A DNA stretch of 38,446 nt, taken from Bacteroides sp. (GTDB lineage Bacteria > Bacteroidota > Bacteroidia > Bacteroidales > Muribaculaceae). A model generated the notes under the pieces. That model had not been told where the DNA came from and did no database searches. It was given only the letters and a program-made list of their open reading frames with translations. The stretch lies in the NCBI GenBank assembly GCA_014802175.1, contig JAAVCU010000003.1, positions 1-38,446 of the forward strand, read 5' to 3'. Position 1 is the stretch's first letter. Every line of letters starts with the position of its first letter. Shown one piece after another: positions 1 through 4,396 of this stretch. The translations under genes were made by a program, and so were the position numbers.

Positions 1-350
1 AGTTCAACCATCGTCTTGATATAGACGTAAGTCTTACCTGTACCGGTCTCCATCTCAACATCAAGGTTGACAGCACCTAAACCGTCAATCTTGCTCAAGG
101 ATTGGGAAAGCGGCACACCGGCGGCAGTCTGAACGGAGTGCAAATTATCGAGGAGCTGTTTCGATGAAAGCTCAACATCCGCATTACGGTAGCCGTCATC
201 GTCTCCATCAAAGCGGATTAAGTCAGAGTTTCGCGTCCCGAGATCTCGACGATACTTCGAGGGGTCACGGTTGGGCTGACCTATGAATATGGCGGTTGTG
301 TTATCTACCGCCTCCGTCTGATAGCCCTGTATCTTAAACTTAAATTTCAT
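1..350 (-). CDS. res: Type III restriction endonuclease subunit R (res), N-terminal part, cut by window edge
   Basis: Only the first 116 codons are present; the gene runs off the left end. I translated it by hand because it is not in the ORF track. It starts MKFKFKIQGYQTEAV at an ATG complementary to 348-350 and is open to base 1. Near the edge it has EMETGTGKTYVY, the Walker A motif of the superfamily 2 helicase/translocase in type III Res subunits, preceded by the usual GYRNADVELS-like stretch. Res joins Mod to cut DNA after ATP-dependent communication between two unmethylated sites. It lies 12 nt downstream of the fic stop, so mod, fic and res are probably one transcription unit. The nuclease end (PD-ExK) is outside the window, so whether Res is intact cannot be judged. 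Confidence 0.9.
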   Translation of the reverse strand, partial: MKFKFKIQGYQTEAVDNTTAIFIGQPNRDPSKYRRDLGTRNSDLIRFDGDDDGYRNADVELSSKQLLDNLHSVQTAAGVPLSQSLSKIDGLGAVNLDVEMETGTGKTYVYIKTMVE

Positions 351-362
351 CACTTAGAATGT

Positions 363-1430
363 TTAAATTGACGATGAAGCAAAAATTCTCCAACTGCCGT
401 CAGATTCACTTCGTTGAATATATCCTTTATTCAAAAGTTGACGCAATTGCTTATTTACCGCTGCTACTGAAATATCGGCAGCTGCTGCAAGCCCTTCAAT
501 TGTAATATCCGGGTTATATTGCATTGATTTCAATAACTTTGGAGTAGACGAACTTCTAAATACAATCTTTTGTCCGTCATACCACCATACGTTAGGTGAA
601 GTTTCTGCGATGAAATCAATATTATATTTCAATTCTTCTGTCACAAGGCTTTTGAAATATCTTAGAAAATGTCTGATTTGTTTTATATCAGCATTAGCAC
701 CGACTGATGGTAACAGACCAGTCTCAACGTCACTTTGATGTAAAGCTTCAATATATTTATGCTTATTCCGACTACGTACAACTATCATTGGCCAGTTATG
801 ACGAGCCAGAATATAGTTAACCATTAGTCGAGCAATTCTGCCGTTACCATCTTCAAACGGATGAATTCTGATATACCGGTAGTGAAACAATGCCGCTAAT
901 TCTATTGGAGTATATTTACCAGATTTTTCCGCATCATTGTACCAGTCAACCAATAATGTCATTAACGCCGGGGTCTCTTCCGGCGAAGCGTATTCAAAGC
1001 GATCTCCATATCGGGTGATTACACTATTGGGTCGATTCTTGTATTGACCTGCATGAACGGTGTAGCTCGTTGTAATACCTCCAGGTAATTGACGATAAAC
1101 TGTATAATCCTCTCGAAGTATAGTTTTATGAAGTTGTCTGATAAAATTTTGAGTTAGTGGCTGTTCTTTAAGATGCGCTTCTTCAGACATCATCTTTACT
1201 CCCACTTGGCTGGCCTTCATATCAACAAAATCCTTCAAATCACCTTCTCCCACAACTTTACCAAAAAGAAGCAATAATTCTGTCTGACCGTAAGTCAGAG
1301 TATTACCTTCAATATGATTGCTGTTGTAGTTATAGTCAACTGAAAAGCGCTGACTCAATAAATATTGCTTCCTTTCACTCAAAGGTTGCAACGATTGCCA
1401 TGTAGTATATAGATTCTGAAGTTTATCCAT
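363..1430 (-). CDS. Fic family protein (class II), probable AMP-transferase with C-terminal winged helix
   Basis: 355 aa. The Fic core motif HPFEDGNGRIAR sits near residues 190-201 and matches HPFx(D/E)GNGRxxR, with the catalytic His and nucleotide-binding Gly/Arg all present. The N-terminus has SNHIEGN (Ser37-Glu41-Gly42), the (S/T)xxxE(G/N) inhibitory motif. Its N-terminal position defines class II Fic proteins, which restrain their own AMPylation. The last ~70 residues (TIEGLAAAADISVAAVNKQL, then a short basic wing) look like a winged helix-turn-helix, so the protein may bind DNA. It sits between mod and res of a type III R-M system, 12 nt before res, and is preceded by a 37-nt inverted repeat that could be its operator. 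The target protein is unknown. All motif residues are intact, so it is probably active. Confidence 0.93.
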   Translation of the reverse strand: MDKLQNLYTTWQSLQPLSERKQYLLSQRFSVDYNYNSNHIEGNTLTYGQTELLLLFGKVVGEGDLKDFVDMKASQVGVKMMSEEAHLKEQPLTQNFIRQLHKTILREDYTVYRQLPGGITTSYTVHAGQYKNRPNSVITRYGDRFEYASPEETPALMTLLVDWYNDAEKSGKYTPIELAALFHYRYIRIHPFEDGNGRIARLMVNYILARHNWPMIVVRSRNKHKYIEALHQSDVETGLLPSVGANADIKQIRHFLRYFKSLVTEELKYNIDFIAETSPNVWWYDGQKIVFRSSSTPKLLKSMQYNPDITIEGLAAAADISVAAVNKQLRQLLNKGYIQRSESDGSWRIFASSSI

Positions 1431-1442
1431 TTTATCAATTTT

Positions 1443-1479
1443 TACGTTTAAAGGTATATGCCATATACCTTTAAACGTA
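1443..1479. promoter_or_regulatory. 37-nt inverted repeat just upstream of fic, candidate operator
   Basis: The two arms are TACGTTTAAAGGTATATG and its exact reverse complement, 18 nt each, separated by one C. It begins 13 nt upstream of the fic ATG in a 140-nt gap between mod and fic. No U-run follows it on the minus strand, so it is not a classical terminator. The symmetry and position suit a site for a dimeric repressor; the winged helix at the end of Fic itself is the obvious candidate. Folded in RNA it could instead mask the fic ribosome-binding region. The function is inferred. Confidence 0.6.
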
Positions 1480-1570
1480 TTTTATTGTTCTTTTCTTGCA
1501 ACTATATCCATGTTTTTAATTTTACAGACGCGTCTGCAAAATTAGTCTGATCAATGATATCATTAATTCA

Positions 1571-3532
1571 CTACAGTACTTTGTGGATAGTGTCGGGAGA
1601 ATAATGCTTGAAAATCTGCTCGAAGTTATCGAGGACGTTATCGTTAGCGGCAGAAGCATCGCGCATTACGAAGTATTGAGGCTTCATCTTGGCGATTTCG
1701 GTAACGGTGGACTCGTTCACATCGGTGTCGAACGTAGCGACAAGATAAGTGCCGTCAACGAAGAACACCTTTTTGCCATTGACTTCTTTTTCTTCAATCT
1801 TTGCCGAAAGTTCAATACCAAGTTCCGGCATTACTTGGAAAAGTAAATCAAGCGGAGTTCGGTCGGACTTCACATTATCAACCGATTTGAATAGGTCACT
1901 TTCGTTAAAATCTTCGGGAGTGTAGAACACATCCTCCATATTCGACGAGTCAAGTTTGAGCACACGGAAACCGACGTCTGGTAGGGACGCGATTCTTCGC
2001 GTCCGCGCCGAATTATCGGAATCATCAAACAAATCCGACTGGTTGGTATTCTCCTTGTCTTCGCGGACGCGATTAATCGCGTCCCTACAGATCTGCTCCC
2101 CGGCACGGCGGATGCGCTCTTCTCCGATTTGGCAAATGTTCTCATAACCAGCCTTACGCGCTTCGCTCTTCTCATCTGTCACTTCGGGAAGCTGCACCAT
2201 AATGAATTTGCGTTTTCCTCCGTCCTCAGCATTGAGTTTCATGACGGCGTGTGCGGTTGTTGCACTCCCGCTGAAGAAGTCAAGAATCGTAGAAGATTGA
2301 GTGGATGCTATTTCAAGCATTTTAGCAACAAGCTCGTATGGTTTAGGAGTATCAAAAACCTGTATACCATCAAACAATTCCTTTATAACAGAGGCAGCTT
2401 GACGAGTCGTACCATATTTTTGTCCTTCCCAAAGATTTTCCGGAGTGCGTCCTTTTTGATCTGATAAATATATTTTTCTGATTATTCCTGTATTATCCTT
2501 CTTGAATATTATTTCACCAGACGCAATTTTTTCTGATACAGACTCTTCTGACCATCGCCATCCATTTGCAGGAGGAGGAATTATATTTCCATTAGGGGCA
2601 ACTATATTGAAACATAATGTTTTTCGATAATTTGGACTTCGTACATCACCACTTCTCCATAATCCTTTAGGATCGTTATCGGGATTTGAATAGTTAACAT
2701 TGTCCTCTTCGGTTCTTTGAAAATAAAATTCGTGAAGATTATTTTTATATTTCGAGAAGCACAATGTATGATTATATTGACGAGAAAAATGACGCTCGTC
2801 ATTTTTACTCTGCTGTGTATGCTTCCAAATTATATCTGAAATAAAGTTGTTCTCACCGAATATCTCCGAACATATTTTTTTTAAATTTTCGACTTCGTTA
2901 TCATCAATAGAAATGAAGATCACTCCATCATCAGAAAGTAAGTCGCGAGCGACTTTCAGTCGAGGATATATCATGTTGAGCCAGTCGGTATGAAAGCGAC
3001 CATTGCTCTCCGTGTTACGCTGCATGGGGTCAGCGGTAAGGTTACCTTCTTCATCGCGGACGCGATTAATCGCGTCCCTACGCCAGTCTGCATAATCCTG
3101 AGCGAAATCGTCGTTATAGACGAAGTCATTGCCTGTATTATAAGGAGGGTCAATATAGATCATCTTGATTTTACCAAGATAGTTCTCGCGGAGAACCTTA
3201 AGCACATCAAGATTGTCTCCCTCGATATAAAGATTTTCTGTATTCCAAAAATCCTTTGAGGCATCCACGTCAGGACGCAGTGTCATATCCGTAGGAGTAT
3301 TGGCAAGACGCGAAGCGGCACGCTTATCTGGCCACGTGAACTGATAACGCTCTTCAGAAGAATCAATAATTTCATCAGATAACTCTTCCTTAAGTTTATC
3401 AAAGTCGATTTTTAATCGGGGGGGGGTATTATATTTCCCTTTTACTTCAGTAACGCAATAGGGGAACAACGCGGCTATCTTTGCCACGTTTCCATCTACA
3501 GCACTGCGAGATGACATTCTGAGTTTATCCAT
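1571..3532 (-). CDS. mod: Type III DNA adenine methyltransferase (Mod), phase-variable candidate, with three in-frame REP inserts
   Basis: 653 aa, beta-class N6-adenine methyltransferase. The catalytic motif DPPY is at residues 128-131. NTESNGRFHTDWLNMIYPRL follows, the SAM-binding motif DFFSGSATTAHAV lies towards the C-terminus, and FRVLKLDSSN marks the conserved tail. Between them is the target-recognition domain, which is visibly more AT-rich than its flanks (about 2290-2930). Codons 36-39 contain nine consecutive C, currently in frame. Three palindromic REP copies are read in frame: one adds RRDAINRVR after residue 150, and an inverted pair near the C-terminus adds RDAINRVR and RTRRIASLP. 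They lie between conserved blocks and may be tolerated linkers. The start lies 9 nt after the RAYT stop, so its promoter or RBS must be inside that gene unless it is co-transcribed. Mod also gives specificity to Res. Confidence 0.95.
   Translation of the reverse strand: MDKLRMSSRSAVDGNVAKIAALFPYCVTEVKGKYNTPPRLKIDFDKLKEELSDEIIDSSEERYQFTWPDKRAASRLANTPTDMTLRPDVDASKDFWNTENLYIEGDNLDVLKVLRENYLGKIKMIYIDPPYNTGNDFVYNDDFAQDYADWRRDAINRVRDEEGNLTADPMQRNTESNGRFHTDWLNMIYPRLKVARDLLSDDGVIFISIDDNEVENLKKICSEIFGENNFISDIIWKHTQQSKNDERHFSRQYNHTLCFSKYKNNLHEFYFQRTEEDNVNYSNPDNDPKGLWRSGDVRSPNYRKTLCFNIVAPNGNIIPPPANGWRWSEESVSEKIASGEIIFKKDNTGIIRKIYLSDQKGRTPENLWEGQKYGTTRQAASVIKELFDGIQVFDTPKPYELVAKMLEIASTQSSTILDFFSGSATTAHAVMKLNAEDGGKRKFIMVQLPEVTDEKSEARKAGYENICQIGEERIRRAGEQICRDAINRVREDKENTNQSDLFDDSDNSARTRRIASLPDVGFRVLKLDSSNMEDVFYTPEDFNESDLFKSVDNVKSDRTPLDLLFQVMPELGIELSAKIEEKEVNGKKVFFVDGTYLVATFDTDVNESTVTEIAKMKPQYFVMRDASAANDNVLDNFEQIFKHYSPDTIHKVL
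1981..2006 (+). repeat. REP-like palindrome, copy 1 (in mod, GTAG head on plus strand)
   Basis: GTAGGGACGCGA, TTCT, TCGCGTCC then GC. It has a GTAG head and 8-bp arms, and belongs to the same family as the other five copies. Read from the mod strand it encodes RTRRIASLP in frame. It faces copy 2 head-outward across 56 nt, forming a BIME-like pair. Confidence 0.9.
2063..2088 (-). repeat. REP-like palindrome, copy 2 (in mod)
   Basis: The core GGACGCGATTAATCGCGTCC is a perfect 20-nt palindrome. The GTAG head is on the minus strand. It is translated in mod as RDAINRVR. It forms the inverted partner of copy 1. Confidence 0.9.
3056..3081 (-). repeat. REP-like palindrome, copy 3 (in mod)
   Basis: Identical over 26 nt to copy 2, including the GTAG head on the minus strand. 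It encodes RDAINRVR between the DPPY block and the NTESNGRFHTDW block of Mod, where related methyltransferases have a variable loop. Confidence 0.9.
3418..3426. repeat. G9/C9 homopolymer tract inside mod
   Basis: Nine G on the plus strand, nine C on the mod coding strand (AAT ACC CCC CCC CGA), covering codons 36-39. With one C more, the frame reaches TGA eight codons after CCG; with one C fewer it reads GAT TAA at once. Both single-base slips would switch mod off. Long G/C tracts near the 5' end of type III mod genes are a known phase-variation mechanism. The sequence shown is in the ON length. Confidence 0.9.
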
Positions 3533-3660
3533 ATTTAAAATTTAATTTGAAAAACAATCCTTAGTCCAATTTTCAACATTCGTATCAACATAATTCATAA
3601 TGTTGTCGAATGCCATCTGGTTACGAATTATATGTTCGTGATAACGCGATTGCCAGCACG

Positions 3661-3684
3661 GTAGGGACGCGATTCTTCGCGTCC
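3661..3684 (+). repeat. REP-like palindrome, copy 4 (in RAYT 3' part)
   Basis: GTAGGGACGCGATTCTTCGC followed by GTCC, the same TTCT-loop variant as copy 1, with the GTAG head on the plus strand. Read from the transposase strand it gives WTRRIASLP, inserted just before the conserved WQSRYHEHIIR block. Confidence 0.9.
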
Positions 3685-3842
3685 ACAGTGTCCTTGTGAC
3701 ACCGGCCTTGAATGATCCAATGATCGTTGCCAACCTGTTGTTGTGATGTTTATCGATGCATTCATCCCCATGTTCCGGCGACTTCAGACATCCGGTATTT
3801 ACCGACTGGTCCGTCGCCGCAGAATGCGACTGGTCGGTCGCG

Positions 3843-3867
3843 GCGGACGCGATAATCGCGTCCCTAC
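3843..3867 (-). repeat. REP-like palindrome, copy 5, one base short (in RAYT)
   Basis: Same as copies 2 and 3 except that the centre reads GATAATC instead of GATTAATC on the plus strand. It directly follows the codons for MPNHIHMVIS of the transposase. The missing base is what puts the rest of the transposase out of frame. Confidence 0.88.
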
Positions 3868-3979
3868 AGAGATGACCATATGTATATGATTGGGCATCAC
3901 CACATGATTTAATAACTCGACATCCACATAATGTGAGGGAATGCTCTGTATGTTTTCTTCTACAATTTTGCCTGATTCT

Positions 3980-4002
3980 GACGCGATGAATCGCGTCCCA
4001 AC
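3980..4002 (-). repeat. REP-like palindrome, copy 6, diverged (in RAYT 5' part)
   Basis: Read on the minus strand: GTTGGGACGCGATTCATCGC followed by GTC. The head is GTTG rather than GTAG, and one outer arm base pair is lost, so this is the most decayed copy. It is translated as VGTRFIAS within the transposase N-terminal half. Confidence 0.8.
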
Positions 4003-4099
4003 GATTCTTCCGAATAAATGTCGCTTCTCATGCGAACATATCGTCACGAAGTAGATACCACCGCTGTAGTCATGCCATTTGGCTCGGAATTGATGTCTG

Positions 4100-4396
4100 T
4101 CAGCCATTCAGTCCTCCTTTCAATCGTTTGAGTTCGATAAATAGTTCTCGCTTGCGGCGTGGCTGTTTGGTAGCGTTCATAAGACGTTTCAATGCAGCAA
4201 TCTGACGTTCAATTTTGGCGCGTTCTTCGTCAACCTTGATTTGTTCAGAAAGAGTTTTGTCCTCTTCGACTGAGAATTGTCCGATTGAGGATACATTGTT
4301 TTCCCAAACAGCATAAAGATTAAGACCTGACAGTCTTAAAGAGCTGCGCCTTTGGCTGCGTTTTTTAACCTCGGTTGATTGTGGCAGTCCTAACAT
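4100..4396 (-). pseudogene. DUF4391-type protein, C-terminal remnant
   Basis: 98 aa. LRLSGLNLYAVWENNV followed by a charged coiled-coil-like stretch (EERAKIERQIAALKRLM...KRELFIELKRLKG) resembles, from memory, the C-terminal end of DUF4391 proteins. Those are full-length at over 200 aa and are found beside helicases and methyltransferases in defence loci. The frame has a TGA 4 codons upstream of the ATG, and the four-helix-bundle cassette begins exactly there, so the N-terminal part has been lost or displaced. The stop overlaps the transposase start (ATGGCTGA). It may still be translated as a small protein, but I treat it as a remnant. The family assignment is moderate. Confidence 0.55.

What the first reader, a model, noticed from the sequence alone, without database searches (positions are those of the whole stretch)
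1431..1480. 37-nt near-perfect operator-like palindrome before fic, paired with a winged helix in Fic
18-nt arms around one base, 13 nt before the ATG, and a wHTH at the Fic C-terminus. This suggests direct autoregulation: Fic binding its own leader and decoupling fic-res from mod. That would allow timing of restriction after methylation, as controller proteins do in type II systems.
Basis: inference. Interest (0 to 1): 0.5.

Follow-up and report, generated by a model that had tools for sequence, protein, structure and literature searches.

The report
Self-regulating operator of a Fic toxin
A perfect DNA palindrome just before a gene for a Fic (AMP-transferring, toxin-like) enzyme is almost certainly the site where that enzyme's own DNA-binding tail docks to control its gene: nearly all of the closest relatives examined carry the matching site, and one amino acid of the tail changes in step with one base of the site.

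Summary
The palindrome is real and better than described: 18/18 nt arms around one base (window 1443-1479), ending 12 nt before the fic ATG, unmatched in 515 control upstream regions or 2,000 shuffles. Of 81 wHTH-bearing Fic genes (window plus 80 relatives, 64-89% identity), 79 carry AAAGGT-N11/12-ACCTTT upstream, with compensatory arm changes. About ten Fic homologues without the winged helix lack it. Operator sequence tracks the wHTH, not the Fic domain (partial Mantel 0.51 vs -0.03). One residue of the predicted recognition helix (N326) predicts base 9 of each half-site (Asn-A, Lys-C, Gln-T), the strongest of all residue-base pairs, and the rule held in further loci not used to find it. Autoregulation by Fic through this operator is therefore strongly supported, though binding and repression are untested here. 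The precedent is CccR of Yersinia pseudotuberculosis.

In this genus the mod-res gap is a variable cargo slot, and fic appears to have arrived with its operator. A side effect on res remains possible.

The parts
1450..1472 (-). Conserved operator core AAAGGTATATGGCATATACCTTT: two half-sites AAAGGT-ATA-nn facing each other (N11 class)
1443..1479 (-). Full 37-nt perfect palindrome (core plus 7-nt outer arms; outer arms not covarying in the family)
363..1430 (-). fic gene, 355 aa: class II Fic enzyme with C-terminal winged helix
1305..1322 (-). Inhibitory-helix motif SNHIEG (residues 37-42), class II pattern [ST]xxxE[GN]
   Evidence: sequence directly
828..863 (-). Catalytic Fic motif HPFEDGNGRIAR (residues 190-201)
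384..548 (-). Winged-helix DNA-binding domain (residues 295-349)
426..467 (-). Predicted recognition helix (residues 322-335), containing specificity residue N326 (codon 453-455)
1499..1506 (-). Candidate Bacteroidota -7 box TATAGTTG (one mismatch to TAnnTTTG); would put the operator just downstream of the start site, as in much of the N11 class
   Evidence: inference
1517..1544 (-). Second palindrome TAATTTTGCAGACGCGTCTGTAAAATTA, containing TAATTTTG (exact TAnnTTTG); role unknown
1571..3532 (-). mod, type III DNA methyltransferase, upstream of fic on the same strand
1..350 (-). 5' part of res (cut by the contig end), starting about 12 nt after the fic stop

Best explanation
The palindrome is the operator of fic itself. 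Fic is a class II AMP-transferase whose C-terminal winged helix binds, as a pair of subunits, the two facing half-sites AAAGGTATA; recognition-helix residue N326 reads base 9 of each half-site. Bound Fic sits next to the fic promoter and most likely represses its own transcription, keeping a potentially toxic enzyme low. The operator came with fic when fic was inserted as cargo into the mod-res gap of a type III R-M operon; res, read after fic, may be affected as a by-product. Shown by sequence comparison: the operator, its conservation, its dependence on the wHTH, and the residue-base link. Inferred: physical binding, dimer binding, the sign (repression), and any effect on res.
For: 79/81 wHTH-Fic genes have AAAGGT-N11/12-ACCTTT upstream. 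Palindromes scoring >=7 lie upstream of 72% of fic genes against 7% of 306 intergenic controls, p about 1e-28. Arm positions 7, 9 and 10 vary in compensation, and the nearest relative L041 (89% identity) shows a two-sided change. Fic homologues without wHTH (L010, L012-L015, L039, L137, L147, L151, L152) lack the element. Operator distance follows wHTH distance after removing Fic-domain distance, partial r 0.51 (p 0.0005); the reverse is -0.03. Residue 326 against half-site base 9: N-A 19/19, K-C 11/13, Q-T 46/47; normalised MI 0.89, top of all residue-position pairs, next residue 0.60. Further loci follow the rule, including a separate Lys clade with N12 spacing. On a tree built without the wHTH both traits need at least 8 changes. 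Residue 326 lies in the modelled recognition helix. Precedent: CccR of Y. pseudotuberculosis, a class II Fic with C-terminal HTH, represses its own promoter through a palindrome (PMC9755527).
Against: No binding or expression data. Two of 81 loci (L042, L045) have a different palindrome, and L002 (71% identity) has none recognisable. The 53%-identity clade (L006-L009, L034, L035) has GGTGGTA sites in the opposite orientation. L052 breaks the residue-base rule (K with A). Only a few of the residue changes are on strongly supported tree branches. Within the N12 group alone the partial correlation with the wHTH vanishes (0.02; little variation left). The loose outer-core motif scan alone is not specific: 960 of 5,069 control windows reach its threshold, so the claim rests on palindromicity, position and covariation.
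Confidence: 0.83

Rival explanations
1. RNA hairpin in the fic leader: the palindrome acts as transcript, masking the fic start or attenuating read-through from mod.
For: The leader would fold into a 17-pair hairpin, -20.6 kcal/mol, z -5.9, ending 12 nt before the ATG.
Against: In most of 41 N12-class relatives the same element lies 37-39 nt upstream of the -7 box and is not expected to be transcribed. In the N11 group GU-type and AC-type mismatches are equal (23 against 22), so no pairing in RNA is being kept. The element follows a DNA-binding-domain residue. No Rfam match.
Confidence: 0.07
2. Operator for Fic whose real purpose here is to delay res relative to mod.
For: The operator sits between mod and fic-res; fic stop and res start are about 12 nt apart, and in empty loci res starts right after mod, so insertion of fic with its operator could uncouple res.
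Against: Operator conserved in dozens of loci with no mod/res nearby; the other mod-fic-res locus (L039) has a wHTH-less Fic and no palindrome; other cargo in the same gap is unrelated. No second instance of the arrangement found.
Confidence: 0.08
3. Intrinsic terminator or chance/mobile palindrome (REP or MITE-like) with no link to Fic.
For: On the + strand the palindrome is followed by TTTTATTG and scores as terminator-like; REP-like repeats lie inside the neighbouring mod gene; L062 and L064 hold a second copy near fic.
Against: No + strand gene ends there and the minus-strand side has no T run; core unique in the genome; consistent position before fic in 79 loci with covariation to the Fic wHTH.
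Confidence: 0.02

Closest known systems
CccR of Yersinia pseudotuberculosis (PMC9755527)
   Same: Class II Fic domain plus C-terminal HTH; footprinted palindrome in its own promoter; represses its own gene as a dimer (from the paper).
   Different: CccR half-sites AGATAATCAT are 26 bp apart; here half-sites face each other within 23-24 nt. CccR is a T6SS effector; nothing of that kind was found or sought here. The two proteins were not aligned here.
SoFic / Sofic class II Fic proteins (3EQX, 9TCL; anti-phage, PMC12249575)
   Same: Fic plus C-terminal domain alignable over residues 30-352 (PADLOC SoFic, 111 bits); same overall fold in Foldseek.
   Different: NCBIfam SoFic equivalog cut-off not reached (32.6 against 550 bits); operator or DNA binding not described for SoFic in the papers read.
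CbFic2 of Coxiella burnetii (PMC10628234, 8CIL)
   Same: Class II Fic with wHTH; DNA binding induces dimerisation and changes (de)AMPylation activity (from the paper).
   Different: Bound random DNA; no specific operator known.
BT_2513 of Bacteroides thetaiotaomicron (3CUC)
   Same: Closest solved structure to the Fic domain (phmmer 9e-96; Foldseek top hit, 53% identity).
   Different: The match ends at residue 268 of the query; the wHTH is not covered.
Controller (C) proteins of type II R-M systems
   Same: Autoregulator next to a restriction gene.
   Different: Small XRE-type HTH proteins in type II systems (own knowledge); here a 355-aa Fic enzyme in a type III operon, operator independent of R-M.

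Membership tests
Class II Fic proteins | Fic motif HxFx(D/E)GNGRxxR | tested here: met
   HPFEDGNGRIAR, invariant or nearly so in the family; Pfam Fic 3e-20
Class II Fic proteins | N-terminal inhibitory motif [ST]xxxE[GN] | tested here: met
   S37-N-H-I-E41-G42, invariant or nearly so
Class II Fic proteins | AMP transfer activity, inhibited by the glutamate | not testable with these tools
   needs biochemistry
Autoregulatory wHTH-Fic (CccR-like) | C-terminal HTH/wHTH DNA-binding domain | tested here: met
Autoregulatory wHTH-Fic (CccR-like) | Palindrome in its own upstream region, conserved with the protein | tested here: met
Autoregulatory wHTH-Fic (CccR-like) | Half-sites 26 bp apart | tested here: not met
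   Half-sites adjacent, N11/N12 between AAAGGT and ACCTTT; hence works like CccR, not filed as a CccR orthologue
Autoregulatory wHTH-Fic (CccR-like) | Protein binds operator and represses | not testable with these tools
   needs gel shift and reporter
SoFic defence protein | NCBIfam SoFic equivalog cut-off (550 bits) | tested here: not met
   32.6 bits; PADLOC SoFic 111 bits
Type II R-M controller protein system | Small XRE-type C protein with C-box controlling res | tested here: not met
   Regulator is a Fic-wHTH enzyme; MTase is type III
Type III R-M operon with cargo | mod and res adjacent or separated by one variable gene | tested here: met
   res cut by the contig end

The most novel reading that the evidence does not exclude
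The operator is more than a promoter switch: as in CbFic2, DNA binding may change the oligomeric state and activity of Fic, so the bound operator would hold the toxin in its safe form and loss of the DNA (degraded by a phage, or a lost locus) would free it, making the DNA site itself the antitoxin. In this locus it would tie a type III restriction operon to a DNA-sensing abortive toxin.
Probability: 0.08. Interest if true: 0.8.

Novelty: new variant of a known kind. Interest (0 to 1): 0.5.

Why it matters
Autoregulation by a Fic enzyme was shown for one protein, CccR; no broader description was found in the papers searched. The comparison here indicates it is the rule in a whole Bacteroidales Fic-wHTH family (with one Capnocytophaga locus), gives the operator for each subgroup, and offers a one-residue, one-base recognition rule (Asn-A, Lys-C, Gln-T) that a few gel shifts can test. 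It also shows that the R-M timing idea is unnecessary: toxins in the mod-res gap are cargo that can bring their own control.

Tried and rejected
Type III R-M origin of the operator: rejected, mod/res homologues flank fic only in the window and L039. RNA hairpin: disfavoured by position and GU/AC parity. Terminator: only on the antisense strand. REP/MITE: core unique in the genome. Whole 37 nt as the conserved unit: rejected, the outer arms pair no better than shuffled. A simple AAAGGT/ACCTTT scan as evidence: not specific on its own (960/5,069 control windows). The held-out scan picked weak sites in some loci (L168, L169, L174, L177); these are not among the 13 clear sites quoted. Strict independent-pairs test on strongly supported branches had too few pairs to reach significance. 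Papers on Fic inside type III R-M operons: none found.

Full report
Observation. The fic gene (window 363-1430, minus strand) is preceded by a perfect palindrome, TACGTTTAAAGGTATATG-G-CATATACCTTTAAACGTA on the fic strand, at 1443-1479. It ends 12 nt before the ATG. Its score exceeds all 515 control upstream regions and all 2,000 shuffles, and its core occurs once in the draft genome. The Fic protein has the class II inhibitory motif SNHIEG, the catalytic motif HPFEDGNGRIAR and a C-terminal winged helix.

Conservation. Eighty Fic relatives (64-89% identity, Bacteroidales and one Capnocytophaga) were fetched with flanks. Seventy-nine of 81 loci including the window carry AAAGGT-N11/12-ACCTTT upstream. 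There are two classes. In the N11 class, to which the window belongs, the operator tends to lie shortly downstream of the Bacteroidota -7 box TAnnTTTG, though a box was found in only 26 of 38 loci and its position varies. In the N12 class (AAAAGGTTGTAnnnnTACAACCTTTT) it lies 37-39 nt upstream of the box in most loci. The same element before and after the start site is what a DNA operator, not an RNA element, would show. In the N11 class GU-type and AC-type mismatches are equally common (23 and 22). Arms change in compensation at positions 7, 9 and 10.

Link to the winged helix. Fic homologues without the wHTH have no such element. Operator distances follow wHTH distances, not Fic-domain distances (partial Mantel 0.51, p 0.0005, against -0.03). 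Scanning every variable residue against every variable half-site position, the best pair is residue 326 with base 9 (normalised mutual information 0.89; the next residue 0.60). Asn goes with A, Lys with C, Gln with T; read on either strand these are the classic Asn/Gln-adenine and Lys-guanine contacts (own knowledge). Loci not used to find the rule follow it: of 13 non-duplicate loci with a clear site (core at least 9/12, at least 8 pairs), 12 match on both arms and L161 on one. Among these is a Lys clade with N12 spacing (L162, L163, L171). On a tree built without the wHTH the residue and the base each need at least 8 changes, though few lie on strongly supported branches. AlphaFold2 places residue 326 in the recognition helix (322-335).

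Exceptions. L042 and L045 have other palindromes; L002 has none recognisable; the 53%-identity clade has GGTGGTA sites in the other orientation; L052 has Lys with A.

Context. Mod and res homologues flank fic only in the window and in L039, where the Fic lacks the wHTH and the palindrome. In the genus, the gap between type III mod and res is empty in eight loci and otherwise holds Zeta-toxin-like, SIR2-like, DUF2971, 23S-IVP or unassigned genes. Fic is thus one cargo among several. A fic remnant in G150 keeps both upstream palindromes after a different upstream gene. So the operator belongs to fic. Whether it also shapes res expression is open.

Comparison with the literature. CccR (PMC9755527) is the direct precedent: a class II Fic with C-terminal HTH that represses its own gene through a palindrome, but with half-sites 26 bp apart. 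CbFic2 (PMC10628234) shows that DNA binding can alter oligomeric state and activity of such enzymes. SoFic-type proteins are anti-phage (PMC12249575). The present family works like CccR but is not shown to be an orthologue.

Limits. All evidence is comparative. The relatives are related by descent; the ranking of residue 326 above all other residues, which share the same tree, is the main guard against that. The promoter is not mapped, and the window contig ends inside res.

Noticed in passing
L182-L210 (mod-res gaps) and window 1-3532: In this genus the gap between type III mod and res is a variable cargo slot: empty in eight loci, otherwise Zeta-toxin-like, SIR2-like, DUF2971, 23S-IVP, DnaJ-zinc-finger or unassigned genes, or Fic.
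   Followed up: partly
window 1517-1544; L126 about 1501; L135 about 1501: Second palindrome (TTTTGCA-N8-TGCAAAA type) in the mod-fic gap recurs after mod in G113 and before a fic remnant in G150 with a compensatory change; it contains a -7-like TAATTTTG. The same letters encode ILQTRLQNLSWSH in DUF1016/YhcG-like genes, perhaps by coincidence.
   Followed up: partly
window 1985-3998: Five REP-like palindromes GGACGCGATTNNTCGCGTCC within 2 kb, three of them inside the mod reading frame, near a REP-transposase-like ORF (3799-4107); only one further copy in the genome.
   Followed up: partly
L105 5248-5271: A Fic-type operator also stands before a sodB-like superoxide dismutase gene directly upstream of fic in Xylanibacter ruminicola; only this one of 80 loci has sodB beside fic.
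   Followed up: partly
L062 3964; L064 495: A second copy of the locus's own operator lies just downstream of fic (L062) or about 340 nt upstream of the fic operator (L064).
   Followed up: no
L042 about -66 to -8 before fic; L045 about -48 to -18: Two close relatives have a different palindrome (GAACGTTC type), suggesting a further specificity class (recognition helix RAVKKQ/RAVKNQ).
   Followed up: no
window 1233-1331 (Fic residues 34-66): The inhibitory-helix region is modelled with pLDDT below 50 although its sequence is nearly invariant.
   Followed up: no
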